Assembly: GCA_947179485.1 (NCBI GenBank)
Contig: OX359246.1
Coordinates: forward strand, 46,169,632-46,233,631
Direction: 5' to 3'
DNA: 64,000 bases
Source of the DNA: Allacma fusca
Lineage: Eukaryota; Arthropoda; Collembola; Symphypleona; Sminthuridae
Positions 2,671-63,652 of the stretch are shown piece by piece. The notes below the pieces were generated by a model. It searched no databases and was not told the origin of the DNA. It saw only the letters and a list, made by a program, of their open reading frames with translations. The translations under genes were made by a program, and so were the position numbers. The first letter of the stretch is position 1; each line of letters begins with the position of its first letter.

Positions 2671-2910
2671 TTTGGTTGGCACTCTTGTCTAATTTGAAAA
2701 AACTTGAAGGAACAGCTCATGCAAATCTTCTCCCACCTTAACAAAATGCATTATAAACGTAGTTTTTGTTTACATGCTAAAATCCAAGACAAAAAAGATC
2801 AAATTTTTTATAATCGAATCTTTAATAATAAATTTTATTACATTGTGCAAGCGCACAAAATTGCTTTCTATGTAGATTAATGATAATTTTTTTTTAATAT
2901 TACTAACGGA

Positions 2911-2985
2911 AGCCGGACATGTTTCAATTCCAGTAAAGCTCTGGAACTTTCAAATGCTTTCCAATTTACTCTTTATCGCTGTACT
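2911..2985 (+). repeat. Small SINE-like fragment
   Basis: The stretch GTTTCAATTCCAGTAAAGCT and the following 40 bases resemble the segment just after the B box of the SINE at 44817-45463. The stretch is short and diverged, probably a 5'-truncated relic. Confidence 0.35.
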
Positions 2986-3122
2986 TCATAACAAAACAAA
3001 AAATTGTACAACAAGTGAAACGTAATTTTTTCAAAATCAATTCAACCTTCTTGTTTGAAGTAAAATCAATATACGGTTTAATATTAGCATTGAATACTCT
3101 CAAACGTTTTGTACTTAATTAA

Positions 3123-22378: not shown

Positions 22379-23390
22379 AACATCCGGAATCTCACCAAAA
22401 TGACAAAAAGGTCGTCTTGAAGCTTCGGTCCCGTCATTAGTGCATCGTTCAGAGAGAACCCACTTGAAGTCTTCGATGATGCATCGAAAACCACTCTAAA
22501 CTTCGAGGTAACTATTGCATGGTGTGGAATGTAACAAACCTCTGAGTCCGCTTTCATAAGGTCCAAAGGTGAGACCAGCTCCATATGACCTAGAGACTTA
22601 TATTCATTCATAAACTCAACGTACTTCTGTTGTACTTCAGGCTTGCGTGCTATCACCCGTTCCATTTGCATTAACCGTTTAATTGCAATATCTCGTGACG
22701 CCCCAAGCCTTGGATGATTCAATTTAAATGGAAGATCCACAACAAATCTGCCCGTCTCATCCCGGGTAGTGGTTTCCATGAATTGAACCTCGCATTGCTT
22801 TTCCTCGGCAGTAAGTATCTGCTTATGGGGTAGAACTTCCTCCACCGCCCAGAACTTAGCCAACATGTTGTCCAACTTTGCCTCATCGCATCGGACATGA
22901 TTCCATGTTGCGGAAGATAATCCCTGTGACGGACAAATTCCACCAACAATCCATCCCCATGTAGTTTCATGAGCTACTGGTAGATTTTCCCCAAGTCTCA
23001 TCTGACCTGAGCGAAGCGAATCAAAAAATACATCAGCCCCTAGTAGGATGTCAATAGCTCCGGTTTTAAAGAATTCCGGATCCGCCAGTGGCAATTTCAT
23101 GTAGGGTGAGATCTCATCTGTCTTGCATGCAATCTTTGGCAAATCTCCGGTGACACGATGAAACACATATGCATCTACATCGATATGATAATCTTCATCG
23201 CATCGAGAACTTACGGAAAGCTTTACTTCACCTCTTGCTCTGCCAACTGAACTCGTACCAATTCCTGAGAACTCCACATCTACATTCCGTCTTCTTATTC
23301 CCAAGAGCTGCACGCATTTCTCCGAAATGCAACTGACATCTGCTCCAGGATCTAGTAAGGCTCGGTATGTCTGAATTTAAACCACTGCAT
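22372..23390 (-). pseudogene. BEL pol: aspartic protease and RT entry
   Basis: The retropepsin motif LLDPGADVSCIS lies near 23310-23365. It is followed by the DUF1758-type blocks TTWGWIVGG and FWAVEE, and the RT entry motif FRVVFDASSKT...SLNDALMTGPKLQ. A TAA just upstream of the protease (near 23380) breaks the link to Gag. This region gave the alignment used to identify the 1535-2428 and 33218-34405 fragments. Confidence 0.8.
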
Positions 23391-23649
23391 CGGTAACATT
23401 TACTAACACCGTTGCTAGTAATGCTCGTTTGGTCCCACTCATCTTATGTGCTGCGTGTACTGACCCCGTCTCACCCTCTCTTCACGGTTGCTGTAGGTGA
23501 TTCTGTATGCAATAATGAATGATGCTTACCCTCACACGTCTTACAAGTGCTTTTGGAATAGCAATTCTGCGCGCTGTGACCCACACGTAGGCAGTTGAAA
23601 CAGAGTGAGAACTGTTTGACTTTATTTCTTCGCTCTGTCACTGTCAGAT
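23391..23649 (-). pseudogene. BEL Gag zinc-knuckle remnant
   Basis: The minus-strand translation contains CFNCLRVGHSAQNC (a CCHC knuckle) and a second CKTC...HH segment, in a frame different from the Gag ORF above. It would bind genomic RNA in an intact element. The shift near 23655 separates it from Gag. Confidence 0.6.
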
Positions 23650-24591
23650 CTATAAACCCCTTTCAACTGAAGATAGGGTGATTTCCTTGCTTACACATCT
23701 TGCATGTGTTATCAGACGTTGTTGCATGAATCCCATATTCAGTGATGATGACTTAGAATTGATCTTCCCTGATACGGATGAACTCAGAATCGAGGCCCGA
23801 TCATCAAGAAACTCCAGAAGCTCTGTCAAGGTTGGAACCCGATCCCGGCCAATCTTTGTCTCCCAAAGCTTAATTGTTTCCGTATCCAATCTTGTACTGA
23901 TGATATGCATTGCTAGATCGCTAGCATCTGCAATCGGCCTTTTCAATGCTTTCAGAGCCCGGACCACTGAGGATGATGTGTCCACCAATCTTCTTAATTC
24001 AGTCCCCGACTCCGACTTCAACACTGGCATTTCCAGGAATCTGGAAAGCTGCGACTTAACCAACTCCCGCAAGTTTTGGTAACGCTTCCGCAAAGTGTCC
24101 CAAGCTTCGGCATAATTGGCATCAGAAATTTGAAATGACTCCAAGAGTGCTGCAGCATCTCCTGACAGTGCGCTCTTCAAATACTGTAACTTCTGCGATC
24201 CCTTCAGGGTGGGATGATTGTGTATACTGGATGTATACAGGTCATGGAATGATGTCCAATCTAACATACTTCCATTGAAAGTTGGAATATTCAACTTCGG
24301 TAGCTTCAGGTTAGGCTCCGATTGAACATTCTGTGCATCTGGAGTAGATGACCCTTTTGAGTGCCGTCTACTTGATTCTTGTGGAGATCGATTTAACTCG
24401 TCCAAGATAAACCGCATCTGCACCTTAACATCAATGAATCGCTCAGACAATTCACAACATTGTGATGAATAATCATCATCTTCATCTTCCGGACAATTTG
24501 ACATAATTTCGTTAAAAAGTGCATTATTCTCAACCCATAGTTCTTGGATATGCTCATCATAAACTTTAGCTGTTTGTAAATTCATTGGCAA
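23650..24591 (-). pseudogene. BEL Gag (DUF1759-type) N-terminal region
   Basis: 313 codons, opening about 160 bp inside the 5' LTR. It contains LPKLNIPTFNGSMLDWTSFH and LKSALSGDAAALL, the hallmarks of Pao/BEL Gag, then AWDTLRKRYQN. These form the particle-assembly domain. The final 25 or so residues lose family character because of a frameshift before the zinc knuckles, so the polyprotein is not intact. Confidence 0.8.
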
Positions 24592-38988: not shown

Positions 38989-40793
38989 CTAAAACATTTT
39001 TCCGCTTGTAAATCTTTCCATCATATCATTGCACCATTTCGGTTGATCCATAATGGCCCAGAAACCGGCATTCCTCAACATGACATATTGGAGGTTACCG
39101 GTTGATTTAACATAGCCTGCGACATCATCATCCACTTTCCACATCTTCCGTGGTGCTTGCTGAAACTCCTCCTTTCCTTTCCAATTCAACGCCTTCATAG
39201 TTCTCTCCTGCCCCAGTCGAGGTACCAGCATATCGAATTGTGGTGAGTAAATTAAAACATTTAAGCCTTTATCCAATATCCTCTCCAATGATTCTACTTC
39301 AGTGTGTCCAAAGGCAGAAAAAAACTTGTAAAAGGCTTTTGTATTAAATAATTCAAATTTATGAAGCCCAACATGGAGGTAATTATGAACTTCCTTAGAA
39401 TCAATGAATCTTGCAAAGCGGGAGAGCTCTGCTGGAGTATTTGACTGTAATATGCTGTGAACATCTGTGAACCCTGTTGTTGTGAAAGTCATGGCTCCAG
39501 GAGTAAAGTGAATTTTTACCATTTGCTAAAGGAAGAACAAATCGTTGTAGTCTATTTTACATTTAGATAGACCTTGTAAAAAGGCAGAACCTAACATTAG
39601 ATGCATCCACGAACTTGTTCAAATCCATTAACTCCACTAACTTCTGTTCTTCCAGGGAAAACATTTCGGATTGATTTTCATCGATAAGCCCCATATGAAG
39701 GAGGACATCACTGAATTTGACTTGCAGCTTTGGTGCTATCCATGGTGACCCAATGATGACGCCTTTAACATTGAACTGGAAGCCGTCAATTTTACCCTTT
39801 TCTTCAAACGTCTCCATCATTTTGGGTATAACTCGTCCTAATTTTATTTTAAGGTGAATGCAAAAATTATTCAAATAAATGTTAAATTCAGCAAGAAGTA
39901 GACATCAAAGAAGTTAACTTATTTTTCTATTTACTTTTAAAAAATTATAAAATAATGACAAAATACTTATGTATTCTGCAAATGTAGTTCTGCTGACCTG
40001 CGTATGATGCACCAGCGAAGTACAAATCTCTTGTTTGATACTCTGGAAAGAGAGTGTATATTTGTTTCATGGCTTCGTATATTTCCTCGTCTTCATCCTG
40101 TGATGATGATGCCAAACCATCTTCTTTGTCTGTGAAGCTAAATCCTGAAAACGGTTAGTTTTAAAATTTTCACAATTGTTGTTATACTATTTTAGGGAGG
40201 AAATTTTCGCACGCAACGCCATGTCTATAAAAATAATTAATTTTAAAATTAATTATTTTTTCTCGCATCTTTACCCGCCCCAACAGGAGTATCAATATAT
40301 ATGAGCGTATGGGTTTTCGCCCAGGTATGGTTTTGCTCTTTCAACTCCAGGTTGTCATCTAAAGTGAAGGGACCATTTTCGAGAAAAATCCCCTGCATCA
40401 GAGAAATCCCTGGAACGCTGTTTACTATTAATATAACAGAAGACGTGTCTGGATTTTCCTGTGGTAAAGAAAAGATTCAGCTTGAAACCTGACGGTTCGA
40501 TTTAAAATGATGTACTGTAATATACACTACGATTGAATTATTACAATTGCTGGGAATAGCCAAAAGAACAAATTAGAGTTGTAGGCCTCATTGATGGTCA
40601 AGTAACCGCTGTAGCTGGTCATGGGCTTGTTTAAAGAAGATTTGATATGAGAGAGTTTTATATTATCGGTCGCCACTTCTTTGGCTTTAGCCAAATTTCC
40701 CTCTCGTATCATCGGAGTTAGAATCAATTCTTCAACAGCAACTGTGAATGGTAATAAGGCTATGAGAAGGGTGAAGATTCGGGAAGGAACCAT
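38989..40793 (-). CDS. S10 serine carboxypeptidase-like protein, copy 3 (probable pseudoenzyme)
   Basis: Exons 40545-40793, 40275-40458, 39998-40144, 39596-39837 and 38989-39525 (249, 184, 147, 242 and 537 nt, the same as copy 1) give 452 residues. The signal peptide is MVPSRIFTLLIALLPFTVA. Predicted key positions: oxyanion stretch V95-N-S-V-P-G100 in place of Q-G-G-P-G; G-A190-S191-Y-A-G194 in place of G-E-S-Y-A-G; D372 in YSPQFD retained; His replaced by F429 in NAGFWAIMDQP. An acidic, Ser-rich insert (about residues 151-165) precedes the nucleophile helix and is shorter in sequence identity to copy 1 there. Family members normally remove C-terminal residues in lysosomes or after secretion. 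Here the loss of His, Glu and the Gly pair argues against that. An in-frame ATG 96 nt upstream was rejected because it would bury the signal peptide. Confidence 0.87.
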
Positions 40794-51395: not shown

Positions 51396-51779
51396 TCACA
51401 GAATTGTTTTAAAGAGTTTAGTCTGCGCTGACGAACTAAAAACCTTTAAAACTAAGCCTTCAACATCCATTGATAATCTGTTGCATGCATTTTTCACAGC
51501 GTTGTGTATAATGCAATATTTAAAATTGGCAGCAACAGTTGATGGATTTTCTTTCCGGAGTTTCTGAAACGCAGAATGTTGGCGACCGTAATTTACGTTC
51601 GCTTTTTTCGCGCTGTAACATCTAATATTTTGAAGTTTTATTCCATTCTTAGCAGCTATGTCTCGGATTTGTTTGAAAATATCCTTGCTGAATTCATTTG
51701 TGTCTTTGTAAAACTCTAGGGTCCCATGAAATCCCATTCCGTGGACTTTATCAAAATACTGGACCTCAAAGGAATACAT
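51396..51779 (-). pseudogene. Second hAT transposase fragment
   Basis: 127 codons open on the minus strand with YFDKVHG, FSKDIFKQIRDI, IRCYSAKKANVNYGRQHSAF and KYCIIHNAVKNAC, ending in DVEGLVLKVFS. These are the middle blocks of the same hAT-type transposase family as 48892-50220 (CYSADNAxVNYG, CxxHxxHNAxK). Both fragments contain the DVEG(L/F)VLKV block, so they are not simply two halves of one copy. No ATG context, terminal repeats or remainder of the gene were found. Confidence 0.65.
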
Positions 51780-51920: not shown

Positions 51921-52634
51921 TGTAACGAGATTATTGGATGTTAAATCTCGTGCCCAAGTTCGGAACGAGTCGAGTATTGATGTGAAGTATTTTTGGTGAT
52001 AATAAAATAATCCGTGGATAAAAAGAAGTTTATACTGAATAATAATCTTGTATTAATTTATTCTGACTGAAATCAAAGATAAAATAAACTTGAAATGATA
52101 AAAGGATTCTTAAAATAATTCTTCTGTGCTGAAAATCCTCCATGGAAAGTCTCCCTGAATTATATTGGGATCCAAGGATCTTTTCCCAATATAATTCTCC
52201 GCATGGCTGTGGATCTTCAAGCCTTGGGCAGGGGCTGTAATGGATACGGATCTGTAACGCGAGCTTTGATCCGAACCATACGAGTGCCTCCCAAGAACTT
52301 ACTGTCTCTTCTTTCTTGACTTAATCTAAAGATTTGGTCTTAGCCTATTTACATAGTATGTACATAATTACAATTCAACATAATCATCATAATTATTGTT
52401 TGTAATAACAATAGGTTGGATTGATGTTAATGGATTTCACATTCCACTCTTTATTCGTTCTCCTCTCAGATTCTGCTGAGTGGAATTGCTGATTGATCTA
52501 AAAGGTTAAATCTTCCTTTTTGAGATCTGTGGACGTGGTCTTTTATTTTCTGCTAACGTGACATCACGCGATCTTTTGTCACGTAGCCTCCGTTTCTTGT
52601 CACGTTCTCCAGGTGTGCGAATTGGGATGTAACA
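51921..52634 (-). repeat. 3' LTR of the Ty3-like element
   Basis: 714 bp, reading TGTTACATCC... to ...CTCGTTACA on the minus strand (TGT...ACA ends), placed directly after a polypurine tract. The 5' LTR is outside the window, so the boundaries rest on the TGT/ACA ends and the tract alone. Confidence 0.7.
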
Positions 52635-52644
52635 TTCCTCTTCT
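52635..52644 (-). promoter_or_regulatory. Polypurine tract
   Basis: The minus strand AGAAGAGGAA abuts the TGTTAC start of the LTR and would prime plus-strand synthesis. Confidence 0.65.
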
Positions 52645-52926
52645 GTCGGTAGGCTGTCCTCAGCCGTCTTCTCGACTGCATAAGGATGTTATATTAGCTA
52701 AACTTTATGTACATGATTAGATCGTCTCAAATATTTACATTCTTTTTATGATTGTGGTTTCCTATTATCTATAAACTTATCTGTGAACTACATGTAGATG
52801 TTTGTGTTGGCTTGTGAGCTATGTGTATTACAGAGTGTGTTTTTCTTACATACTACTTTTTACAGTTTGGTTATAAGCGTACGTTCCTTTTCCTTTTTGG
52901 ATTTTCTGGGCATTAAATTCGGACTC

Positions 52927-53670
52927 CTAAGGTCGGGCGGGTAACCTTGCGGTTGATGGCCCTGGTGTGGGTGATGCTCGTACAAGTTTACATCCTACTA
53001 AACGTTCGAAACTGTTCTGAACCACTGTTGCGGTATCCGGCGCTGTGATCCTCTTCAATTCTTGGTATTGATGTCTTGATTCCGGTATTGGTCTACGAGC
53101 TATTATTCGACAATAATAGGCACTAAGGCTGATGATAGCGATTAAGATGAAAATTCCAAAACTGCAAAGGATGATGATGGTGAGGTTGCTGTTTTCAGCT
53201 GGTGGTGGTGGAATCCATGTATCTCCTACGTCTTGTGCGTATTTTTGTAACCAAGGTGGATATCTGTTAAAGTCGACTTCACCTGTTGAAGGATTTATTG
53301 GTTGGTTTATTTGCGGTCTTTGTAGTACTTGCTGCTGTTGTAACTGCATTTGTTGTTGGAGTTGCAGTTGGTTTTGTTGTTGAGCAGCTATCACGTTTGC
53401 ATCTAGCGGGTCGTAAGGTACAGCAGCCATTTGTCCATTGTTGCCTGGATGTAATAAATGCACAACAGGATCTTTTTGTGACAAATGGGTGGCGGTAATA
53501 GCTGTAGATCCTACCAACATAGGTGGTACTACGTACTTTGCGATCCATGCTCCAATACTCGTAAGTCCCGCTTGAACTACCGGTCCTATCGGTTCAGGTA
53601 TCGGAACTGGTAGAGTTTCCACAACTGCTAGAGTTATGGTGATGTACAGAATCAAAGGTCTAAGTGTCAT
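52927..53670 (-). CDS. ORF F: type I membrane protein, Gln-rich
   Basis: 247 residues. An N-terminal signal peptide (about 1-20) is followed by a Pro-rich stretch and a hydrophobic segment. A Gln/Leu-rich tract (about 97-120), an N-glycosylation sequon at 162 and one strong transmembrane segment (about 164-187) follow. The cytoplasmic tail has RR, YQEL (residues 202-205, a tyrosine-based sorting or late-domain-like motif) and C-terminal Pro/Ser. It is the last gene before the LTR and stands alone, without overlap, 640 bp after ORF E. No family was recognised. A surface glycoprotein or viroporin-like role is possible for a retrovirus-like element; this is inference. The ATG at 53670 gives the signal peptide. 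Confidence 0.75.
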   Translation of the reverse strand: MTLRPLILYITITLAVVETLPVPIPEPIGPVVQAGLTSIGAWIAKYVVPPMLVGSTAITATHLSQKDPVVHLLHPGNNGQMAAVPYDPLDANVIAAQQQNQLQLQQQMQLQQQQVLQRPQINQPINPSTGEVDFNRYPPWLQKYAQDVGDTWIPPPPAENSNLTIIILCSFGIFILIAIISLSAYYCRIIARRPIPESRHQYQELKRITAPDTATVVQNSFERLVGCKLVRASPTPGPSTARLPARP

Positions 53671-54312
53671 TACTCAAATCTATGTTTTCTTTGATTATGA
53701 GTTTCTGACAATGGGTAATTGTTGCGAAGATAGATTTTGATCGATTGGTGTTGGAAGTCCAGGGACAGGTTGTAAGTTGACTGTGTCCAGCCTGATCCTG
53801 GAGCTTTCCTTTTATACTGAATGGTCTTGATTGTTTAGAACAGTTGAGAATGTAAACAATTACGAGTCTTTTGCAAGATTTACTTAATAAAGGGATGTTG
53901 GTCCGAATTTAATCTCCATACTCTTCCGGTGGTAATAATCTAAATGTAAACTATAAACAAAATTATGTTAGCTTTGTTCTTTTTGTATTGTTTTCTTATT
54001 ATGTATTTCTTTTATTTGATTTTATGCTTATCCTATGTTCTGTTATACTGCCATTCCTCTCTAATCCTCCGGAAATCCCCAATGGCTGATTAGGAGTAAA
54101 TGTCAGTTGTTTTGGTTTCGTGATCTGCATTCTATTATTATAAAATGCTGACGCGAAATTCTTGCTCTCTAGAATTTTGCATTCCTTCATAGAGCTCCCC
54201 GTAAAGGTTCGTTATCCTACTTCTAACCTACTCTGCTCTTTCTCTCTCTCCTGTTTTGACTATTAAGATTGTATTAAATAGTCTGACCGTAATTTCTGTT
54301 GATGTATTGATT
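53671..54312 (-). other. Spacer between ORFs E and F
   Basis: About 640 bp without a credible ORF, the only long non-coding gap in the 3' half of the element. It may hold a splice acceptor for ORF F. None was assigned with confidence. Confidence 0.4.
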
Positions 54313-57300
54313 TTATTGCCTGACAGGTGGATCTTTCGTCAGGGGAGATGTATCGCCCTTCTTCTGGGGTAGCTTCCTGAAACTGATGATGATCAGTCTA
54401 GGTTCTGATGTTCCCAATCCAGATTTTATGTTGTACTTTCTCTTCAGGTTCAACGCCTCTACGAATCTGTTGAATTCTTCGTCATTTGATAGTGCTAGCT
54501 GTGACACATAAAATTGTGTTGGGGTGATGGGGTCAGTTTCTCTTCGTCCTTCTAATAATTGATTTTCAGGATCTCGTATTATTATCTCGGACTGTGGTAT
54601 TATCTTGATGCCAAATAAAGTGCCAAGTATGTCGTCAGGGTTAGCTGGAACCTCTATTACAATCGAACTCCATGTTTCTGCTAGGTTCAATTGGATGGTC
54701 TGCCTGACTAATGATAGTTGAGTTACGCCTGGTATGTAATCTACATGTGGGTCGCGTACTCTGGCTGGAGTTGTTCGGCTTTGATGTAGTCCTTCTACTG
54801 CCCGTGTCAGTCTGCTGAAGCGTTCTTGTCTCCAACAGTAAATGATGTTCAACTCGCTCAGATACTCTATGAACAATTTATGTTGTGGTTTTCGGATTGA
54901 AAACAGAATCCCTTCTGGATTCTCTACATGAAGTGTAGCTGGATAGATGTTGATGGTGGCACTGTATAAGTCAAAAATCCATTCTTCCCATTGTTCTATT
55001 TCATCTAACATTTCTGCTATGGGTGAAGATTCCCCTTCCGATCTTATGGATTCTCCAGTCCATTCCTTCCATTTTTCTATGGCCGCTCTTTGTTTGTACA
55101 GAATGATGAGGCGCTGTGCCATGGGTTGGAATTCTCCACAAGAAAGTTGGTCCGCTGGTAAATCTGCTAACATCTGTAGTCCTGTCTCGGGTCGTCCTGT
55201 TATAGGCGTTCCACGGTGAATAAATGTTTCCATCCATAGAGCTTGTTCTCCCCAGCTGGGTTCTAATCCTATGTCATTCCATATGTGAATGAGTAGTCTC
55301 CTCACTTCTGTTCCGGTTAATCCTTGGAACGTACCGTGATGTTCTCGGCCTAGTAATTGTTGTGGAATGGTCGTCCCTTCATTTTCTTTAAGGGAACGGT
55401 ATAGGGTATCCCATAATTGTGCTACCATTTCTCCTGGGTGAATGGTTAGGTCGGTGGCTAATGTTTCCATTCTTGAGTCTGTAAAAGATATTCGTCTCCG
55501 TGCTTGTCGGTAGATTATGGCAAGGTCTCGTTCCGCTGGTGCTACTGCTTGAAATTCCATAGGGTGATCCATTGCTTCTTGCATTAAGCTTCGTCTTTCC
55601 CTAATGGTTTCTTGTCGAGTTTCAGTGTCGGCATCAAACATGTTTTCTTCGTAAGAGAAAGTTTCTCTTTGCGGTATGTTTTGAGCTTGCTTCAGCATTT
55701 CCTGCAGCTGTTCCAATTTGATTTTTGGCTGCTTATTTTCTTTCACCTTTTTCCTTGCAGTTCTGGCCTCTATGGTTTCCATATGCATACGGTGTGTCCA
55801 TTGGAACAAACTATTTGCTCTCATTCCATCATGATCTGGTTTACGTATGCATGGAAACTGTTTTGGGTCTCTGCTTGGTACATCTTGACAATTTCTGCAT
55901 TTGTCTATCATCGGCAATCGTCCGTGTCCTTTGCATACTCTGCATTGCGGTCTATCGGTCCAATATGGTCTGCTGTCATTTTTCCAATCAGGTGAAAGGT
56001 CTCCTATGCGTCTCGTCATGTCTCTTTGTGTTTCTTCTGCTGGACTCCTATCACGAAAGCATTGTCGTCTTTGCTCTGGTGAAAGTCCCCTTTCATTTTG
56101 TGCGCTTCGTTCGGCTCTTCCTATTGCGAATGGTGCTTCGACATTTTGAAAGACTGTGGCTTGTGTAACTGAATCTGGGCGCTGTAAAACAATAAGTTCG
56201 CTTCCACTTCTGATGTATTGTGGATGCGAAATGTCAATCCGTGTTATAGTGAGGTCTCTTTCCTCAGGTGGGGTGACATTACGAGACTGAGATCTTGTAT
56301 CAAAATCGTATCCTCTCGTGAATCTTTGAATGGTGTCCCTCTGTAGTTCAATGAGTCTTTCTTGTTCCCGTACTTCTCTTTCTTCCTCAGATGCTTTCAT
56401 AGCTTCCTCTATATCTTTCCTTAGTTGTTCCTCCTCAATTTCGTCCTCAGATTGTTCTTTCTTCTCATCTGGAAGTGTTCCTGCAGTGCATTCTGTAGGA
56501 TTTCCGCATAGCATTTCGGGCGTTAATGGTGGATCCCATCCTGCCTCTCTATTTACTCTGGCAAGGAATCCAAACATTTCTTCTCCCTTTTTCATAACAT
56601 CTAAACTTGGACAATCTAAGTTTAAAAAGGATGGTCGTTTGGTTTTCTTTCGTGCTTTTGCTTTCTCTTTCTTTGGTTTAGGTTGATTTTCTTGTGTCAA
56701 GGCTGGTGATGCTGGTCGTTCCTCTTCTGGAGGTGCTGATGGCGTTGGTGTACTCAGCTCTCCTTCCTCCTGAGTGGCTTCGACATCGGTGTTAGGTGGA
56801 GTATCTTTCAGAATCTCTGGTGGATTTTTTGTCTCATCTATTGCAAATGCTGTACCTATGTACAACAAGGTTCTAAAGATGAATCTTACAAAGCCTTGTA
56901 GTATGCCTGTGTTTTTGGGAGCTGCTGATGATTCGCCGCTCTCCTTTTCCATGGCTCTCAGTAATTCCAGTTGTTTTCTGATAAATTTGTGGTTGTACTC
57001 AATGGGTGTCCATGAGTCGTCTGGTCCAAGAAAGGCTTCTCTTTTTCGTCGTAGATGGGTCTCCTCCTCCCCTCTGGGAAGCTCGTTGCCCTCAATGATG
57101 GCGGTTCGACGAAAAAGTCTACGTTGGTTGAATGCTGTTACCTGGGCCTCAGTTTCCCATTTCTTAAATTTGTCTGTTTCGATGTGATCTACTCCTTTGT
57201 AAATCATTGGGAGTAAAATTGCAACTGTCATATTGGCCTCATGGATGGTGATGGCGGTGTTAAAGAAAACTACTTCTCCGTCCAAAATTTCTCTGTCTGG

Positions 57301-57495
57301 ATGGTTGAAGTCTTCTCCTAATGTTAAGCTATGAGGGTCTTCTTGGATTTGTCTTTGGATCTTTGACAAATCCTCTCTTGGGGTAATACTTCTTTTGGTC
57401 CTGTTGTTGTGTGGTTGGTATCCTAGTATAATTTTTAAGCTTGATCCTAGGTGTTCATTGATACCTTTGTCGACTGCTTTTTCTAAGGTACCCAC
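54313..57495 (-). CDS. ORF E: 1060-residue protein with N-terminal furin-like sites
   Basis: Overlaps ORF D by 13 nt in another frame. Two dibasic, furin-like sites lie near the N terminus (RTKR at 32-35, RRKR at 149-152). An extracellular-looking stretch with NMT and a hydrophobic segment (about 198-219, VRFIFRTLLYIGTAFAI) precede a long charged region: Pro-rich, then a Lys-rich run, then Glu/Arg-rich helix (about 330-400). A CxxCxGxG...CxxC cluster (PQCRVCKGHGR...CRNC, near residue 550) resembles a zinc-binding module. The C-terminal 400 residues look globular and mixed helical. No known family was recognised. The N-terminal part may continue an envelope-like product begun in ORF D; the rest is unlike any envelope. 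A single 3.2-kb frame with no stop is strong evidence of coding. Confidence 0.75.
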   Translation of the reverse strand: MGTLEKAVDKGINEHLGSSLKIILGYQPHNNRTKRSITPREDLSKIQRQIQEDPHSLTLGEDFNHPDREILDGEVVFFNTAITIHEANMTVAILLPMIYKGVDHIETDKFKKWETEAQVTAFNQRRLFRRTAIIEGNELPRGEEETHLRRKREAFLGPDDSWTPIEYNHKFIRKQLELLRAMEKESGESSAAPKNTGILQGFVRFIFRTLLYIGTAFAIDETKNPPEILKDTPPNTDVEATQEEGELSTPTPSAPPEEERPASPALTQENQPKPKKEKAKARKKTKRPSFLNLDCPSLDVMKKGEEMFGFLARVNREAGWDPPLTPEMLCGNPTECTAGTLPDEKKEQSEDEIEEEQLRKDIEEAMKASEEEREVREQERLIELQRDTIQRFTRGYDFDTRSQSRNVTPPEERDLTITRIDISHPQYIRSGSELIVLQRPDSVTQATVFQNVEAPFAIGRAERSAQNERGLSPEQRRQCFRDRSPAEETQRDMTRRIGDLSPDWKNDSRPYWTDRPQCRVCKGHGRLPMIDKCRNCQDVPSRDPKQFPCIRKPDHDGMRANSLFQWTHRMHMETIEARTARKKVKENKQPKIKLEQLQEMLKQAQNIPQRETFSYEENMFDADTETRQETIRERRSLMQEAMDHPMEFQAVAPAERDLAIIYRQARRRISFTDSRMETLATDLTIHPGEMVAQLWDTLYRSLKENEGTTIPQQLLGREHHGTFQGLTGTEVRRLLIHIWNDIGLEPSWGEQALWMETFIHRGTPITGRPETGLQMLADLPADQLSCGEFQPMAQRLIILYKQRAAIEKWKEWTGESIRSEGESSPIAEMLDEIEQWEEWIFDLYSATINIYPATLHVENPEGILFSIRKPQHKLFIEYLSELNIIYCWRQERFSRLTRAVEGLHQSRTTPARVRDPHVDYIPGVTQLSLVRQTIQLNLAETWSSIVIEVPANPDDILGTLFGIKIIPQSEIIIRDPENQLLEGRRETDPITPTQFYVSQLALSNDEEFNRFVEALNLKRKYNIKSGLGTSEPRLIIISFRKLPQKKGDTSPLTKDPPVRQ

Positions 57496-58808
57496 CTTAT
57501 TCTTAGTGAAAATACCTGGTAACGTATGTCAAATAACTGGAATAGTTTATGAGGTGAAAGTTTCCATCCGTCACGCATGACTCGTGAAAACATCAAAATT
57601 CCACTTGGTGTATCGACTTCCCGTTGGTGATTTTCGTTGTGATTTTCATCCTGTACATAAATAGCTTTGTTCCACAGTTGTGAAATCGATGAGTTTGTTA
57701 ACCATTCAGCTTGTCTCTTAGCTCTGACAGAGATGGGTTTTCTTACGTAAGGTGATGAGGTAGTAGTTGTGGTGGTTGTGATTGGAACTTGGATATTTAG
57801 GTTGTTTTCCAGTTCCATCACACTGGCTGTGTCAATAGGAAGTGTAATCCACATTGGTCTTCCGTCTTCAAGTTCGTATTTGACCATAATCCAATCCTCT
57901 GGAATGACTACTCTCTGTCCGCATGTGGGCTTCCAGTATTGGAAAACATAACTTAGTGTCATGATGGTCCAAGTTAAGGCTATAGCTGCCATAGTGGCGC
58001 ATCCTTTTGCTGTTACGGATTCTTTGAATCTTTGAATCCAATTGGAAAAGAAAGGTCTCACATTTTCTCCGAAATTGTGAGGTGGCGGCTCGCTATCCCT
58101 TGTATGAAGTCTGCGGTGTCGTTCCATACTGTTGCATGTGAAGTCGTCATGTTTCGCGGTCTCATTAAACGATTTCATTAGACGATTAAATCCTTCCCGT
58201 CCGTGTAAATAATTGTTGGTGGTGACGGGTCCTGGCAAACGTGTTGTTGGTGTCATTCCTAATCCCATTGTTACTACTCCCATGAGTAACATAAATGTGA
58301 AAAAGTTGTGTCCAATGGCTGGAATCGGTCCTCCACGTCCTCCTCCTCCTCTGGGTGGAGAGTGATCATCCCGTGGTGGGCTGGGAGTTATCGGTAACTC
58401 TTCCGTATCCATACTTAAGGAAATGTCATGAGGTGGTGTCGCAAAATCCGATAAAGATGAAGATTCAATGTGTTGTTGTAAATGAGTTGGTTCCAAGTAT
58501 TTTTCCAATTCTGTTGCTATCTCGTCAGTTAAAAGTGGAGTGATAGCTCTCTCCAGTTCGGTTTGGGTTTTAAATACTTGAGTTCTGTTGACGCTGTTAT
58601 TCAGGGTGGATAACTCCTTCTCCCCTGTGGGTGGTTGGACTTCCGTTCCATTTGTTCCCATGCGTTGATATGGTTCTAGTGATGTCTCTGGACCTGTCGC
58701 TTCCGGGGGTTGCTGAGCTTCTTTTGGCATCTCGGGGAATTTCCTAGAGTCGGGGTCAATTCCCAATAATGTACATACGGCTGGGAAATTATGTTTAATT
58801 CTCTCCAA
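57483..58808 (-). CDS. ORF D: membrane protein with two hydrophobic segments and a furin-like site
   Basis: 441 residues, overlapping ORF C by 133 nt and ORF E by 13 nt, each in a different frame. The N-terminal third is hydrophilic and Pro-rich, with a Gly run (about 153-160). Hydrophobic segments lie at about 168-185 and 268-291. A Thr-rich stretch (about 343-351) and RAKR (362-365) precede a C-terminal part with sequons (NSS). The combination of membrane segments and a furin-type site is compatible with an envelope-like glycoprotein, but no retroviral, baculoviral F or errantiviral Env signature was recognised. The start at 58808 is the first ATG of the open frame; the overlap suggests use of spliced RNA or reinitiation. 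Confidence 0.7.
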   Translation of the reverse strand: MERIKHNFPAVCTLLGIDPDSRKFPEMPKEAQQPPEATGPETSLEPYQRMGTNGTEVQPPTGEKELSTLNNSVNRTQVFKTQTELERAITPLLTDEIATELEKYLEPTHLQQHIESSSLSDFATPPHDISLSMDTEELPITPSPPRDDHSPPRGGGGRGGPIPAIGHNFFTFMLLMGVVTMGLGMTPTTRLPGPVTTNNYLHGREGFNRLMKSFNETAKHDDFTCNSMERHRRLHTRDSEPPPHNFGENVRPFFSNWIQRFKESVTAKGCATMAAIALTWTIMTLSYVFQYWKPTCGQRVVIPEDWIMVKYELEDGRPMWITLPIDTASVMELENNLNIQVPITTTTTTTSSPYVRKPISVRAKRQAEWLTNSSISQLWNKAIYVQDENHNENHQREVDTPSGILMFSRVMRDGWKLSPHKLFQLFDIRYQVFSLRIRWVP

Positions 58809-60880
58809 TCAATACGTATCTTATGCACTTGTTCTTGTGCATAATCTCGCATTTCTTTGAAAATGGCTGGGTCCTTTCCATTGTGGGTGGCAAATAAAAT
58901 AGATAAACTGTCTCGTTGTAAATTGCGAACAATTTCGTCGTATTGAGATTGTCGCTTTGAATCCAAATCCAAAATATGGATTGCTCGCTGTAGTGGGTCT
59001 AACGTTGGTAAAATTATTTCCATTTCTGCCTCGGTCTTTGGTCCCTCGGCTTTCTTTCTAGCCAATTTTTCGGTCTTTATGCGCTTTTTCATATGGCATT
59101 CGCATTCACCATTCTTAGGTTGAGGATCTGTCAAATTCATGGGGATATGTCGGTTCCTCTTGCATTTGGCATGTGTACATTTGATGTAGCTAATCTGCTT
59201 CACGATTTCCACTTCTGCTTCTGAGCTGACTGCTGATGTATCTGTAGTGGACCCTGGGCTTTGTGTCGTCGACTGTTGAGGTACATCATTTTCAATGATC
59301 ATGATGTCTGGTGAGCCTGGCTGATGTGATTGGGGCTCGTTCCGATTTTCCGGTGTTGTTAATATTATGTCCAAAGAAGTAGCCTTCTTTCCTTTGGCAT
59401 CTTCTGTCTGTACAACATTAACTTCCATGGCTGGCTGTATTAGTGTTTGAGGTGTGGATTGTATAGTTGGCTCCACTCGTGCTGTATTTGGTCCTATCGT
59501 GCTATGCTTTGTTGGTGTGGTTGGGGTGGATGTGAAAGGTTGGTCGCCTCTCGTTCGTTGTTCAGCCTTGGCCTCTCGTTGTGGTAGGGGTTTTTCGTCC
59601 CCACGGTTGGAGTCCTGAGGGCTGTACGGCCTCTCCTTTCGTGGAGGTGTGTTGGGCCTCTTCTGGATTTTTTGGGTGTGGAAAGTTACAGCGTTATAAC
59701 TGGCCTTTGTTGTGTCAATGGGTGGAGTGAGTATGGATTGTCTTTCCGTACTTCTACTCCTGACAGGTGAGTTTCGGCTTCGCCTTCTATCGTCCTCATT
59801 TGACCTATGTCCGCTGCGTTCGTAATGTCTTGCAGGTGACCTTCGTCTTTGATAATAGTAAGTGTCTCTATGTCTGCTGCTACTTGTGACAGTTTCTACT
59901 CTGGGTGGCGTACTTTCTCTCGATCTCATCCTTTTTGGTGTATGAGATGAGATTTCCTCCGTTTTTCTGGATCGCTCCTCCTTAGAACTTTGGCGGTCTC
60001 TAGAGCTGTATCTTGAGCTACCAGGTTCTCGATCTTCATGGCGATTATCTTTCCTCAACTCTCTCCTTATTCCTCTCCCTACTGCCACGGGCTGTACAAA
60101 CTTGAAATCTGGTTCTTTGTCAAGCTTGTCAGATGTGACAGTGGCTGGTAATTTAGCAGGTTTGTCTTCCGGTCCCCAGTCACTTACTCCATGCAATCGT
60201 TTCTTTGTAAGTTTACACGCTGGGTCGGCTGTAAAAATTCTTTTCGCTGAGTCCACAGTGTAAGGTCGTCTTTCGTCTTCTAATTCTTGTGACGTTGCCC
60301 ATGGAGTCCTCAAAAAATCGGTACAAGGTGGCATAATTGTTGACACCTCCTTTTCTCCTTTGAAGGGAACAAATTTCCATGGGTCTTCAGGTTGACGATT
60401 CCTATTGCTGGCTGGTATTGCCACTTCGTTTATCTTTGTGGGCTCAAAAGGTTGGTCTTTGAATAGAAATACCATATCATCCGGGACTCTCTTTCCTTCC
60501 CGAATTTCTTTCTCCTCTTCTGCAAAATTTAGGGAGCCGCAATAATAAGGGTCTCTTTTCAAAACTCTGTAGTCGTAGTTGGAAAGTGCACCAGTTTTTT
60601 GTAGTGCTCCGATAAAAAATGAATGACAAGTAACTTCATTCTTTTGTTCCGTTCGAATAATGATTCTGTGTCCAATTCTTCCATCTAGACTGGTTACTGC
60701 TTCCAGACGATGGGTGTCCATGTTAGGAATAAGTTTTGATGTTGGTTGTGGAATTTCTGTGGTGCTTACATACTGTTTCCAGTATAAGGGTCGTCTTGAG
60801 TCGTCATCCTCCTCTGAGGAATTATGTGACTCATTCCTTGCAGTTTGATATGTAGATGATTGCTGACCGTTTGGATCCAT
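58676..60880 (-). CDS. ORF C: Arg/Ser-rich protein with Cys/His cluster
   Basis: 734 residues. The N-terminal 190 residues look globular. A central Arg/Ser-rich, SR-protein-like region (about 270-390, with RSRESTPPR and RSRSTERQ) suggests nuclear localisation and RNA binding. It is followed by a long Thr/Pro-rich linker. A compact cluster C-T-H-A-K-C ... C-E-C-H (about residues 590-625) could bind zinc, and a helical C-terminal tail follows. It overlaps ORF B by 50 nt and ORF D by 133 nt. No homologue was recognised. A regulatory, RNA-export or transactivator role like that of complex retroviruses is an inference from composition and position only. Confidence 0.7.
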   Translation of the reverse strand: MDPNGQQSSTYQTARNESHNSSEEDDDSRRPLYWKQYVSTTEIPQPTSKLIPNMDTHRLEAVTSLDGRIGHRIIIRTEQKNEVTCHSFFIGALQKTGALSNYDYRVLKRDPYYCGSLNFAEEEKEIREGKRVPDDMVFLFKDQPFEPTKINEVAIPASNRNRQPEDPWKFVPFKGEKEVSTIMPPCTDFLRTPWATSQELEDERRPYTVDSAKRIFTADPACKLTKKRLHGVSDWGPEDKPAKLPATVTSDKLDKEPDFKFVQPVAVGRGIRRELRKDNRHEDREPGSSRYSSRDRQSSKEERSRKTEEISSHTPKRMRSRESTPPRVETVTSSSRHRDTYYYQRRRSPARHYERSGHRSNEDDRRRSRNSPVRSRSTERQSILTPPIDTTKASYNAVTFHTQKIQKRPNTPPRKERPYSPQDSNRGDEKPLPQREAKAEQRTRGDQPFTSTPTTPTKHSTIGPNTARVEPTIQSTPQTLIQPAMEVNVVQTEDAKGKKATSLDIILTTPENRNEPQSHQPGSPDIMIIENDVPQQSTTQSPGSTTDTSAVSSEAEVEIVKQISYIKCTHAKCKRNRHIPMNLTDPQPKNGECECHMKKRIKTEKLARKKAEGPKTEAEMEIILPTLDPLQRAIHILDLDSKRQSQYDEIVRNLQRDSLSILFATHNGKDPAIFKEMRDYAQEQVHKIRIDWRELNIISQPYVHYWELTPTLGNSPRCQKKLSNPRKRQVQRHH

Positions 60881-61082
60881 CTAAACGGGTAACTTTGAAA
60901 ATCTTGTTGGCGAAAACTTGGTCAATGAAAAATGGTCCAATATGCTTAACTCTCTTTCTTGTGGAACCGTCGTAATAACGAGTTGTTGAAAGTCGGATTA
61001 CTTCTCCCACTGAATATTTCCGTGGCTGTAGTTGGTAAGGGTCTGAACACTTTAGAATGTGGTGTAAATAATAGAAGTTCAT
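60831..61082 (-). CDS. ORF B: small protein resembling an integrase GPY/F module
   Basis: 83 residues. Its ATG overlaps the pol stop as ATGA (TGA at 61081-61079, ATG at 61082-61080), a layout typical of termination-reinitiation coupling. The pattern Y-x-V-G-E-V-I-R-L ... K-H-I-G-P-F-F-I-D-Q-V ... K-V-T-R-L-D-G-S is that of the SH3-like GPY/F domain found at the C terminus of gypsy integrases. Pol carries its own GPY/F domain (YRGPFKVIEVL), so this would be a second, separately translated copy. The family-like pattern makes coding likely despite the size. Confidence 0.6.
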   Translation of the reverse strand: MNFYYLHHILKCSDPYQLQPRKYSVGEVIRLSTTRYYDGSTRKRVKHIGPFFIDQVFANKIFKVTRLDGSKRSAIIYISNCKE

Positions 61083-63652
61083 ACCTCGGTCTCAAAACCA
61101 AATCTTTGAGGTGACTTCCTTTGACGTGTAGGGTATCGTTTATGTGCTACTTTCTCTTTCTCACAATCACTCTCGTCGACGGTATCTGGGAGTATTGTGT
61201 GATGTGGAGAATTGATTTGTATTGTTGGGCTTCCTGAAGTAATATCTTTGTCCCCTCCTGGGCTATTTCTGACGTCACTAGTAACTGTTGGATTTGGATG
61301 TCCAGTATTCGCTGGAAAGTTATTATTTCCTCCTTGATTTGATTGATTCGTTCCCTGGCAAACCTTTGTTGAGCTATTTTGGACATGAGGTTCCTCTTCT
61401 GTAGAATCTTCTACTTCCTTTCTTGGGCTGCTTTCTGGAGTTTCAATATTTTTAATTTCAATTCTCTTTGATTGTGATTGGCCTGTCTTAATTTCTCCGC
61501 TGTCTCCTCCAACTGCCTCCTGAGTTGAGCCTGTGTCGCCTCCGCCTGTCTTAATTCTGGTGTTGTGACTTCCGGAGATGTTGGAGGTGATGTGTGACTT
61601 GATTTGTCTGACATTCAACGTTTGCTCTGCTCCTTCCGGCGTTGAAAAGCTCGGTTCTCCTCTGCTATCTCCTCCTGGAGGGCCAGTAATTCGTGTCTCA
61701 AATTCTCTATCTCTGTCCGAATTCTTGGCAAGGCTCTCCTCACCACTTCGGCTTGTGCAAAAAGTCTCACGTTCTCCGTCGTCACTCTGGCTATCTGTGC
61801 TCTCAATTCGGCCTCTGAATGATTGGGTAGTTGTGGCGGGTTGGCGTGTGGCGGTGTCATAAGTATTTTTCAGCGATTGTTTCTCCGCGATTGTGTTTGC
61901 AGGTCCGATCGTAACTTTTGGGCCTGCTGACGAAGCTCCTGAAGTTGTCTCTGAAGTTCTCCCTGTTGCCTTTCTGCGTTCTCCAATGCTCTCCTCAGTT
62001 CTATATTGAGGGCTCGTGCCTGTTGTGACTCTTGTACTAGAGGGTTGTAATATGGGGGGTTGTTTCTCTGCATCTAATGGTCTTTTGTCACTGCAAGTAC
62101 CAGCATATCTTTGATACTTGCTAGTGCCCACTTGACGTCCTGTAACTCGCTCTCGAGAAGTTGATTGATTTCCTGTTGAAGTAGAAGTGCCTGCTTCAGG
62201 TGTTGGATTTGTTTGCGAAGGTGGTGAATTGCTGGAAATTGGTCCGCGGGATAAAGGCTGTGCTCCGGCATTAGTACAAATAGGATCTTTTTGTACTGTA
62301 TGCTGATCTTGTTCCTCACTTTCTAATGGATCTTTGAAAGTAAGTCTCTTTCGCTTTGGTTGAGTTGAAGTCTCACGTTGAGTATTAGTCTTTAAAATTG
62401 ATTTGAGCACAAACTCACTTTGCCCTTTTTCCACCAAATTCCAATTTCTTTTTGTTAAAATTTCCACTAAATCTGAGTCCAGATCGTATCTGAACTCTTC
62501 TTCGAAGTCCTCACGGCGTGTGCAGGGCTTGAGTCGCTCTACATGTACTTTCTGTGTTTTCTTTGGAGTTTTGTAATCCTGAATAATGTAGTTGTCTTTT
62601 GATAAGACTTCAATAACTTTGAATGGACCTCTGTATGGGTGTAAGAATCGCTCTGATTTTCCGATCACTCTGGTTGGTGTGAAGACTCGTACTGAATCTC
62701 CAATCTTAAATTGTACTTGTCTTCTCTTCCGATCGTACCAATCTTTACTATACTGTTGTCTTTGTGTTATCTTCTTTATTGCCTTTTGGAGCCGGGATTT
62801 TGCTTCGTCGGCTGTTATTAAGTCGTAGTTGACCGTTTCACATGACATAATCATATCCATGTCATCAATATGTTCCATCCTGAACATCATAAAGAATGGG
62901 GTCTCTCCCGTCACATCATGTCTTGATGTGTTATAGGCGTGGATGAGATAAGGCAGGCACATGCACCAAATACTTTGTTCTTCTTGTGCATAATGGCTGA
63001 GCATTGTACTTATGGTCTGAACCATTCTCTCAATTTGTCCCACGCTATTATGCCTCATTGCAGTTGCTGTAGTATGATTAATCTTCAGCTTTCTTAAAAG
63101 TTGCTTTGTCACTTCCGCTCGAAATTCTGATCCAGCATCGCTCATCAGGTTTTTGAAAAGTCCAAAGTTTAAAACTACATGATGAAGTAAAAAATTTGCT
63201 ATCCTCTCAGCAGTTTTATCTGGAATAGGCTGAGCAATTACGTATTTCGAAACGTAGTCTTGGGCTATAATAATATATTTGTGTCCGTTTACACTTGTAT
63301 GTATAGGGCCTATAAGGTCTACACAAAGTGCATCGCCTACATTTTCTACTCGTATAGGGTGTAGGAGTCCGGCGGGCTTTTGCCTTGGGATCTTTGCTGC
63401 TTGGCAGCTTTCGCATGACATTACATATTTAGCCACTGAAACTTGGATCTTTTTCCAGTGGTACTTTCGACATAGCCTATGTAGCGTTTTCTGAAATCCG
63501 AGATGGCCTCCACATAATAATCCGTCGTGGGCCTTAGTTAATAAAAAGTTTCTCAAAACTCTAGGTACTATGAGTTTTGGTCCATCTTTATGTTGGACAT
63601 ATAAAATGCCATGTTCATCATAAAAATACTTCTCGTATTTTTGTTTCTCTCT
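61079..63652 (-). CDS. pol, integrase region with long disordered tail
   Basis: Open from the TAG at 63655-63653 down to a TGA at 61079. Residue numbers are counted from the Leu codon at 63556. The zinc-binding HHCC domain has H10, H18, C48 and C51 (SCESC). The catalytic triad is D80 (VDLIGP), D140 (SDAGSEF) and E176 (GQIERM), spacing D-35-E. A GPY/F domain (YRGPFKVIEVL) follows near residue 305. This is Ty3/gypsy-type integrase. The remaining 440 or so residues are Ser/Thr/Gly/Pro-rich and disordered, ending in a typical pol-end basic motif (KRYPTRQRKSPQRF). The tail is far longer than usual and is overprinted by the coiled-coil ORFs below. Translation probably comes from a longer Gag-Pol, so no start codon is needed here. 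Confidence 0.88.
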   Translation of the reverse strand, partial: REKQKYEKYFYDEHGILYVQHKDGPKLIVPRVLRNFLLTKAHDGLLCGGHLGFQKTLHRLCRKYHWKKIQVSVAKYVMSCESCQAAKIPRQKPAGLLHPIRVENVGDALCVDLIGPIHTSVNGHKYIIIAQDYVSKYVIAQPIPDKTAERIANFLLHHVVLNFGLFKNLMSDAGSEFRAEVTKQLLRKLKINHTTATAMRHNSVGQIERMVQTISTMLSHYAQEEQSIWCMCLPYLIHAYNTSRHDVTGETPFFMMFRMEHIDDMDMIMSCETVNYDLITADEAKSRLQKAIKKITQRQQYSKDWYDRKRRQVQFKIGDSVRVFTPTRVIGKSERFLHPYRGPFKVIEVLSKDNYIIQDYKTPKKTQKVHVERLKPCTRREDFEEEFRYDLDSDLVEILTKRNWNLVEKGQSEFVLKSILKTNTQRETSTQPKRKRLTFKDPLESEEQDQHTVQKDPICTNAGAQPLSRGPISSNSPPSQTNPTPEAGTSTSTGNQSTSRERVTGRQVGTSKYQRYAGTCSDKRPLDAEKQPPILQPSSTRVTTGTSPQYRTEESIGERRKATGRTSETTSGASSAGPKVTIGPANTIAEKQSLKNTYDTATRQPATTTQSFRGRIESTDSQSDDGERETFCTSRSGEESLAKNSDRDREFETRITGPPGGDSRGEPSFSTPEGAEQTLNVRQIKSHITSNISGSHNTRIKTGGGDTGSTQEAVGGDSGEIKTGQSQSKRIEIKNIETPESSPRKEVEDSTEEEPHVQNSSTKVCQGTNQSNQGGNNNFPANTGHPNPTVTSDVRNSPGGDKDITSGSPTIQINSPHHTILPDTVDESDCEKEKVAHKRYPTRQRKSPQRFGFETEV
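61147..61386 (-). CDS. Overprinted coiled-coil ORF 5 of 5
   Basis: 79 residues in the frame one base off pol. Leu/Ile heptads run through KEEIITFQRILDIQIQQLL. It starts 24 nt after the TAG of ORF 4, and its final residues are basic. It is the last of the chain, ending 65 nt before the pol stop. Confidence 0.35.
   Translation of the reverse strand: MSKIAQQRFARERINQIKEEIITFQRILDIQIQQLLVTSEIAQEGTKILLQEAQQYKSILHITQYSQIPSTRVIVRKRK
61411..61614 (-). CDS. Overprinted coiled-coil ORF 4 of 5
   Basis: 67 residues. A Ser/Thr/Pro-rich N terminus is followed by the heptads QLRRQLEETAEKLRQ and ELKLKILKLQ. The ATG directly follows the TGA of ORF 3 (TGAATG). Same frame as the others. Confidence 0.4.
   Translation of the reverse strand: MSDKSSHTSPPTSPEVTTPELRQAEATQAQLRRQLEETAEKLRQANHNQRELKLKILKLQKAAQERK
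61615..61860 (-). CDS. Overprinted coiled-coil ORF 3 of 5
   Basis: 81 residues. Heptads run from AELRAQIARVTTENVRLF through IRTEIENLRHELLALQEEI, with a basic C terminus. The ATG is 9 nt after the TGA of ORF 2. Confidence 0.4.
   Translation of the reverse strand: MTPPHANPPQLPNHSEAELRAQIARVTTENVRLFAQAEVVRRALPRIRTEIENLRHELLALQEEIAEENRAFQRRKEQSKR
61870..62073 (-). CDS. Overprinted coiled-coil ORF 2 of 5
   Basis: 67 residues. A short Asn/Pro/Tyr-rich start, then a very strong coiled coil (ELRRALENAERQQGELQRQL and QELRQQAQKL). The ATG directly follows the TAG of ORF 1 (TAGATG). Confidence 0.4.
   Translation of the reverse strand: MQRNNPPYYNPLVQESQQARALNIELRRALENAERQQGELQRQLQELRQQAQKLRSDLQTQSRRNNR
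62074..62319 (-). CDS. Overprinted coiled-coil ORF 1 of 5
   Basis: 81 residues. The heptad region is HLRKQIQHLKQALLLQQEI through NQLLESELQDV. First of five same-frame ORFs (81, 67, 81, 67 and 79 residues) inside the integrase tail. Coding is suggested by composition and stop depletion, not by homology. Confidence 0.4.
   Translation of the reverse strand: MRNKISIQYKKILFVLMPEHSLYPADQFPAIHHLRKQIQHLKQALLLQQEINQLLESELQDVKWALASIKDMLVLAVTKDH

What the first reader, a model, noticed from the sequence alone, without database searches (positions are those of the whole stretch)
52635..61082. About 8.4 kb of extra, overlapping genes between integrase and 3' LTR in a Ty3-like retroelement
Directly seen: after the DD35E integrase come ORFs of 83, 734, 441, 1060 and 247 codons on the same strand, four linked by overlaps of 4, 50, 133 and 13 nt in alternating frames, then a polypurine tract and LTR. 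Known Ty3/gypsy elements and errantiviruses have zero to two ORFs there. The layout (compact overlapping accessory genes, an Arg/Ser-rich protein, membrane proteins with furin-like sites) recalls complex retroviruses more than any described insect element. None of the five large or small products was recognised by me beyond a GPY/F-like module. This is the best candidate in the window for an undescribed system.
Basis: partly seen in the sequence, partly recalled or inferred. Interest (0 to 1): 0.88.

Follow-up and report, generated by a model that had tools for sequence, protein, structure and literature searches.

The report
Giant springtail retroelement with overlapping genes

Summary
The host is the springtail Allacma fusca: contig C10 has exactly the published scaffold N50. 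The window copy is 24.6 kb; 14 LTR pairs lie 24-26 kb apart. Six of 10 LTR pairs fetched are identical, so the family moved very recently. Other copies encode a 2014-aa Gag, a -1 frameshift signal, a Pol of about 2200 aa, an 83-aa ORF, a 2200-aa ORF3 and a 255-aa ORF4. ORF3 is under strong purifying selection (dN/dS 0.12-0.16); no relative was found in the collections searched. That frame holds five ATG-started mini-genes of 65-81 codons separated by single stops. All starts and stops are kept in 20 of 20 fully covered copies, one of them at 74% nucleotide identity. Stop-start spacings of 0, 9, 0 and 24 nt suggest relay reinitiation (inferred). ORF3 may be an Env-like polyprotein.

The parts
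51921..52634 (-). 3' LTR, 714 bp, TG...CA, ATAT on its outer side
   Evidence: 5' LTR of the same copy lies outside the window (L017, G000:C8 near 46245433-46246144), 3 mismatches
52635..52647 (-). purine-rich stretch next to the LTR (candidate polypurine tract)
   Evidence: sequence; function inferred
52927..53670 (-). ORF4, 247 aa here, 255 aa in other copies; signal-like start and one strong transmembrane segment
   Evidence: dN/dS 0.119 over 247 codons
53671..54312 (-). non-coding spacer between ORF3 and ORF4 with TATAAAAG at 53816-53809; candidate internal promoter
   Evidence: 25 substitutions in 620 aligned nt, 10 in the first 480; TATAAAAG in 4 of 4 copies aligned; promoter role inferred
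54313..57495 (-). third piece of broken ORF3 (ORF3 residues about 1130-2200), the 1060-aa ORF
57483..58808 (-). second piece of broken ORF3 (residues about 701-1129), the 441-aa ORF
58676..60880 (-). first piece of broken ORF3 (residues about 1-702), the 734-aa ORF
60831..61082 (-). 83-aa ORF; its ATG overlaps the pol stop (ATGA) and its end overlaps ORF3 by 50 nt
   Evidence: dN/dS 0.052 (window), 0.144 (L034), 0.089 (L035); TATGA in 20 of 20
61147..61386 (-). mini-gene c5, 79 codons, +1 frame of the Pol tail
61411..61614 (-). mini-gene c4, 67 codons, +1 frame of the Pol tail
61615..61860 (-). mini-gene c3, 81 codons, +1 frame of the Pol tail
61870..62073 (-). mini-gene c2, 67 codons here (65 in the other copies read), +1 frame of the Pol tail
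62074..62271 (-). mini-gene c1, 65 codons, +1 frame of the Pol tail
61079..63556 (-). C-terminal part of Pol: integrase (H2C2, rve, p58_C) and the dual-coded tail
   Evidence: rve is below its curated cut-off (28.5 against 32.6 bits)

Best explanation
A roughly 25-kb, recently active Ty3/gypsy-type retroelement family of the springtail Allacma fusca. SHOWN from sequence: a giant Gag; a canonical-looking -1 frameshift signal into Pol; five conserved mini-genes (c1-c5) dual-coded in the +1 frame of the Pol tail; an 83-aa ORF whose start overlaps the pol stop; a 2200-codon ORF3; and an ORF4 with a transmembrane segment; all under purifying selection. The window copy is a recently inserted, decayed copy. 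INFERRED: the run c1-c2-c3-c4-c5-83-ORF3 is translated as a polycistron, ribosomes that end one cistron restarting at the next (spacings 0, 9, 0, 24, 64 and -50 nt), as in caulimovirus relay translation. INFERRED more weakly: ORF3 is a polyprotein with a glycosylated, furin-cut Env-like middle, and ORF4 has its own promoter in the conserved spacer, as foamy viruses have for accessory genes (recalled). c1-c5 would be small helical proteins, perhaps adaptors of the particle or of the restarting ribosome.
For: One 2200-codon frame in other copies. dN/dS: ORF1 0.16, ORF3 0.123 and 0.159, ORF4 0.119. Mini frame 0.14 (window), 0.158 (L016), 0.164 (L035) against pol frame 1.79, 3.5, 1.49 and third frame 1.0, 0.8, 1.0. 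Five starts and six stops in 20 of 20 fully covered copies, stop swaps TGA/TAA and TAA/TAG, pol frame open in 17 of 20. Non-conserved linkers, with extra stops in L035, favour ATG starts over readthrough. Frameshift site GGGAAAC plus hairpin in 4 copies. LTR pairs identical in 6 of 10. Sequons of the ORF3 middle kept 4 of 4 in L034.
Against: No RNA or protein data. No TGGGA motif in the 90 nt before any of the six stops. No known restart factor among the proteins. How ribosomes reach c1 is unknown. The 20 copies are mostly near-identical, and the 14 fetched last were chosen from copies with a whole ORF3, so independent evidence comes mainly from the window subfamily and L035. The hydrophobic segments of ORF3 are weak and give no consistent topology. 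The spacer is little conserved in L034. Both structure predictions failed. Heptad signal is significant only for c2 and c3.
Confidence: 0.58

Rival explanations
1. c1-c5, 83 and ORF3 are real genes but are expressed from separately spliced subgenomic mRNAs, as in complex retroviruses; the tight stop-start spacing only reflects compactness.
For: Animal retroviruses do this (recalled). Six donor-like motifs lie in the 2468-nt leader, not tested against chance.
Against: Stop and start are adjacent at two of the four c junctions and kept in L035 at 74% identity, and ATGA joins pol to the 83-aa ORF; separate mRNAs would not need this. No acceptor prediction was made.
Confidence: 0.35
2. The +1 frame is one protein of about 390 residues made by stop-codon readthrough or recoding.
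For: All five segments are in one frame, and each gap is bounded by a single stop in most copies.
Against: Linkers are not kept as protein, and L035 has extra stops before the c1 and c5 ATGs. ATGs are kept in 20 of 20. Stop types are mixed and swapped.
Confidence: 0.05
3. ORF3 is not Env-like but a cytosolic or nuclear multidomain protein that acts on RNA or chromatin; only ORF4 is a membrane protein.
For: Arg/Ser-rich N-terminal third, CxxC pairs at 1658-1676, weak hydrophobic segments (one above 1.5 mean hydropathy), few cysteines in the middle. ORF4 has a strong transmembrane segment (2.7).
Against: Sequons are kept 4 of 4 in the middle in L034 against 1 of 5 before residue 800 and 2 of 3 after 1500; RxKR sites 1060, 1172 and 1289 are kept in L034.
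Confidence: 0.4
4. The window region is an ordinary element with fragments of unrelated elements nested by chance.
For: The window copy has several broken frames.
Against: The same order is present in the other copies read, and one LTR pair encloses it.
Confidence: 0.01

Closest known systems
Burro giant gypsy-like elements of planarians (PMC6431247, passages read)
   Same: Gypsy-like, internal region up to 25 kb, much coding sequence of unclear function, CCHC Gag.
   Different: In Burro the extra domains, env included, lie within one giant ORF1 between gag and pol, with ankyrin, BIR, MATH and BCL2 motifs. Here the extra genes follow or overlap the end of pol, and no such Pfam domain was found.
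Errantivirus (gypsy group with baculovirus-type Env)
   Same: Ty3/gypsy Pol and a possible Env-position gene.
   Different: No Baculo_F match in ORF3 pieces or ORF4; far larger; mini-genes.
Caulimovirus polycistronic translation with TAV (PMC5972666, passages read)
   Same: Tightly spaced or slightly overlapping ORFs on one RNA of a reverse-transcribing element.
   Different: Here an integrated LTR element of an animal, cistrons of 65-81 codons, no TAV-like protein recognised; relay is inferred.
Bdelloid rotifer LTR retrotransposons with captured ORFs (PMC5408684, start of abstract in a search listing)
   Same: LTR elements of small invertebrates with ORFs beyond gag and pol.
   Different: Those extra ORFs include known enzyme types (recalled); here none of the extra ORFs reached a family cut-off.

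Membership tests
Ty3/gypsy (Metaviridae) | Pol order protease, RT, RNase H, integrase | tested here: met
   (L010, L011); rve itself below its cut-off, H2C2 and p58_C above
Ty3/gypsy (Metaviridae) | LTRs with TG...CA ends and a short (4-6 bp) target duplication | tested here: met
   714 bp, TG...CA, ATAT on both sides in the window copy
Ty3/gypsy (Metaviridae) | Gag with capsid domain and CCHC knuckle | tested here: met
   zf-CCHC above cut-off; capsid-like part 29% identical over 127 aa to a protein (P0001) that carries Retrotrans_gag PF03732 (E 8e-5)
Ty3/gypsy (Metaviridae) | tRNA primer-binding site after the 5' LTR | tested here: inconclusive
   TGCTGTTTCTGCC follows the LTR, no TGG start; no self-primer match over 7 nt
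Errantivirus | Baculovirus F-type Env | tested here: not met
   no Pfam Baculo_F match in the six window ORFs or in ORF3 1-1355 and ORF4 of other copies
Troyka | CG...CG termini and 3-bp target duplication | tested here: not met
   TG...CA and ATAT; definition from part 1 of 5 of PMC12440569
Burro | extra domains between gag and pol within one ORF | tested here: not met
   Gag and Pol are separate overlapping frames; extra genes at the 3' side
Caulimoviridae | no integrase and no LTR (recalled) | tested here: not met
   integrase and LTRs present
Relay-translated polycistron (works like) | downstream cistron yield depends on upstream termination | not testable with these tools
   only spacing and conservation of starts and stops shown

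The most novel reading that the evidence does not exclude
An animal LTR retroelement that carries an operon: seven consecutive cistrons (five dual-coded helical mini-proteins, an 83-aa protein and a 2200-aa protein) translated in relay by termination-reinitiation, helped by an element-encoded restart factor that may be among its unknown proteins.
Probability: 0.4. Interest if true: 0.92.

Novelty: new variant of a known kind. Interest (0 to 1): 0.82.

Why it matters
Animal Ty3/gypsy elements are usually described with gag, pol and at most an env. This one moved recently at about 25 kb, close to the Burro size described in PMC6431247, with eight coding units after or over the end of pol, none assignable to a known family here. 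The tandem, dual-coded, stop-start mini-genes would, if translated in relay, make polycistronic translation in an animal testable in a natural system with several conserved junctions. Its host belongs to the globular springtails, for which paternal genome elimination is reported (PMC9630974, start of abstract in a listing), so a young virus-like element there also bears on how such elements persist.

Tried and rejected
Separate overlapping genes 734/441/1060: rejected. Nested separate elements: rejected; one LTR pair encloses the region. Homologues: none for the 734-aa ORF (the 8000 candidates sharing most words were scored), none for ORF3 residues 740-2195 (6124 candidates), only four PDB hits at E 0.64-0.8 for the 1060-aa ORF, none in viral contigs for the 1060-aa ORF, the integrase or the 83-aa ORF, none in genome contigs for ORF3. 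Structure: two AlphaFold2 jobs, ORF3 residues 1560-2200 and 850-1380, gave mean pLDDT 35.5 and 28.7, so no fold search was run. Other dual-coded regions: none seen in ORF1, ORF3 or the Pol parts scanned; the Pol region between RNase H and integrase has weak selection in its own frame and no clear signal in another. Antisense coding of c1-c5: registers give dN/dS 0.33-1.8 with 9-24 stops. Readthrough: see rivals. Self-priming: longest match 7 nt. One search was run with a 2-nt offset that mislabels the frames; one search replaces it. In one search the pol-frame stop counts of L060-L073 used a wrong anchor; one search replaces them. In one search the L021 stretch came out empty and gave no data. 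Donor-like motifs were listed but splice acceptors were not predicted. The ten literature searches answered listed no description of this family or of such a mini-gene array; the library holds open papers only.
Full report
Where it is. One search places the window at G000:C8:46169632-46233631 of a 392.7-Mb genome in 91 contigs. C1, C9, the total and the contig number differ slightly from the paper, so the version held may differ. The host is a hexapod of class Collembola, not an insect. The window lies on chromosome 2. The published assembly has QV 58.7, so sequencing indels are an unlikely general cause of broken frames.

The observation. All five ORFs, their overlaps, the purine-rich stretch and the LTR are present. 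But of 46 genome matches of the 1060-aa ORF, 21 sit in one frame of 2199-2200 codons with no stop in the match, and 2 more in a frame of 2200 with one stop. In L033 the frame is 2200 codons without a stop, and the window's 734, 441 and 1060 ORFs align to its residues 1-702, 701-1129 and 1130-2200. They are one gene, ORF3, broken twice in this copy. ORF1 of this copy is matched in four pieces, and Pol in pieces with a stretch unmatched.

The element. The 5' LTR of the window copy lies in L017: 714 bp, 3 mismatches to the 3' LTR, ATAT on both outer sides, 24.6 kb in all. Of 40 LTR places listed (the best-scored ones), 28 form 14 pairs 24-26 kb apart, 8 form 4 pairs at 14-34 kb and 4 are single. 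Of the 14 pairs I fetched 10 besides the window's: 6 are identical and 4 differ by 2 or 3 bases. The window LTR is 6.6-7.9% away from the copies; others are 3-7% away. Other copies show a 2468-nt leader with 23 ATGs against 49.7 expected from composition, ORF1 of 2014 codons ending in a CCHC knuckle, and Pol with protease, RT, RNase H and integrase and about 640 mostly acidic residues between RNase H and integrase. Pol length (about 2200) is estimated from two overlapping partial copies. Pol is in the -1 frame of ORF1; in their overlap lies GGGAAAC, in register with ORF1 codons GGA AAC, then 7 nt and a GGGGG/CCCCC hairpin, in the 4 loci that reach it, the window copy among them. The longer segment around it does not fold unusually well (z -1.23).

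Hidden genes. Frame-by-frame dN/dS was calibrated on regions of known kind: ORF1 is low only in its own frame throughout, RT-RH and ORF3 likewise, the leader shows no comparable signal in any frame. In the Pol tail the signal changes frame: L011 against window gives 1.70 in the pol frame and 0.147 in the +1 frame over 389 codons. That frame reads as five ORFs of 65, 65-67, 81, 67 and 79 codons from ATG to stop. Within the ORF bounds the mini frame gives 0.14 (window, 357 codons), 0.158 (L016) and 0.164 (L035, 350 codons, dS 1.29), and the pol frame 1.79, 3.5 and 1.49. Of 21 sequences examined one (L010) was cut short by the fetch; in the other 20 all five ATGs and all six bounding stops are present, and all five ORFs are whole in 17; the exceptions are L035, L067 and L072. 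The pol frame is open to its own stop in the same 17 while the third frame has 32-39 stops there, so both frames appear to be used; the last 21 pol codons are selected in the pol frame (0.124, 7 against 4 changes). Nineteen of the 20 belong to the main family, and 14 of them were picked from copies with a whole ORF3, so they are not independent; the window subfamily and L035 (74% nucleotide identity, itself decayed) carry the weight. Stops are swapped for other stops (c2 TGA to TAA, c5 TAG or TAA), and linkers are not kept as protein. c2 and c3 are coiled-coil-like by heptad periodicity (p 0.008 and 0.0015, 2000 shuffles); c1, c4 and c5 are not significant. Weak Pfam hits, all below cut-off, are largely to coiled-coil families (that reading of the names is mine).

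Downstream. The pol stop overlaps the ATG of the 83-aa ORF (TATGA) in 20 of 20. The 83-aa ORF has dN/dS 0.052, 0.144 and 0.089 against window, L034 and L035; within the young group there are only 0-3 changes of each kind, so ratios there (0-0.31) say little. ORF3 gives 0.123 against window (2195 codons), 0.159 against L034 (2174) and 0.14 over 978 codons against L035. Its middle keeps 4 of 4 N-glycosylation sequons (913, 1070, 1171, 1228) in L034, against 1 of 5 before residue 800 and 2 of 3 after 1500; the one at 1171 is lost in L036. RxKR sites at 1060, 1172 and 1289 are kept in L034, 928 is lost there, 1172 is changed in L036, and 1289 is unclear in L036 and L037, where frames break. Hydrophobic segments lie at 863-881, 969-987, 1220-1238 and 1341-1359, only the first above 1.5. 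This favours an Env-like middle but gives no consistent topology. ORF4 has a signal-like start and a strong transmembrane segment and dN/dS 0.119. The first 480 nt of the spacer before it differ at 10 sites between window and L013 (2%), against 24-27% at fourfold sites of ORF3 and 17% of ORF4; TATAAAAG is kept in the 4 copies aligned. In L035 the 123 nt available align over most of their length; in L034 little beyond the start is shared.

How it may work. Shown: gene content, selection and layout. Inferred: Gag-Pol by -1 frameshift; c1-c5, 83 and ORF3 by termination-reinitiation (spacings 0, 9, 0, 24, 64, -50 nt), as described for CaMV in passages of PMC5972666, where ORFs are tightly spaced with short overlaps and more than about 130 nt of overlap inhibits; ORF4 perhaps from an internal promoter. 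Against: no TGGGA motif near the stops, no known transactivator, no RNA data. Splicing of separate mRNAs remains open.

Relation to the known. Pol order, LTR ends, target duplication and Gag place it in Ty3/gypsy. Of 1203 hits to its RT-RH region 120 were listed, the five best animal ones at 36-42% identity; among 66 tips it sits on a long branch (0.88) next to two unnamed environmental proteins (support 0.886). None of the 120 proteins matches ORF3, ORF4, the 83-aa ORF or c1-c5. Burro is nearest in size but differs in layout (PMC6431247, passages). The literature searches listed under Tried and rejected showed no description of this family.

Noticed in passing
window 19747-24591 (minus) and 1535-2428 (plus): Pieces that look like BEL/Pao-type elements (label from memory; the ORFs are).
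   Followed up: no
window 14416-18191 (minus): Two ORFs (448 and 574 aa) that look like a non-LTR, R2-like retrotransposon with a zinc finger (label from memory).
   Followed up: no
window 3123-3641 and 38989-39522 (minus): Two similar ORFs that look like last exons of serine carboxypeptidase genes (label from memory).
   Followed up: no
window 51396-51779 (minus): A 127-aa ORF right beside the LTR that looks like part of a transposon-derived protein (label from memory).
   Followed up: no
L023-L032 (chromosome ends): No TTAGG-type arrays among the eight motifs tried at ten contig ends; some ends read like ribosomal DNA (from memory), and C12 ends in TAGTTAAGCTTG repeats.
   Followed up: partly
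L034, L035, L036: Decayed copies of more distant subfamilies (ORF3 identity about 59-86% in their pieces), so the family is old although some copies are new.
   Followed up: partly
L010:3556-9900, residues about 780-1425: About 640 residues between RNase H and integrase, mostly acidic and weakly selected, with no Pfam match above cut-off.
   Followed up: partly
L018:3598-9660, nt about 2836-3800 of the frame: Substitutions between subfamilies are denser here than in neighbouring parts of ORF1, which may mean recombination between subfamilies.
   Followed up: no
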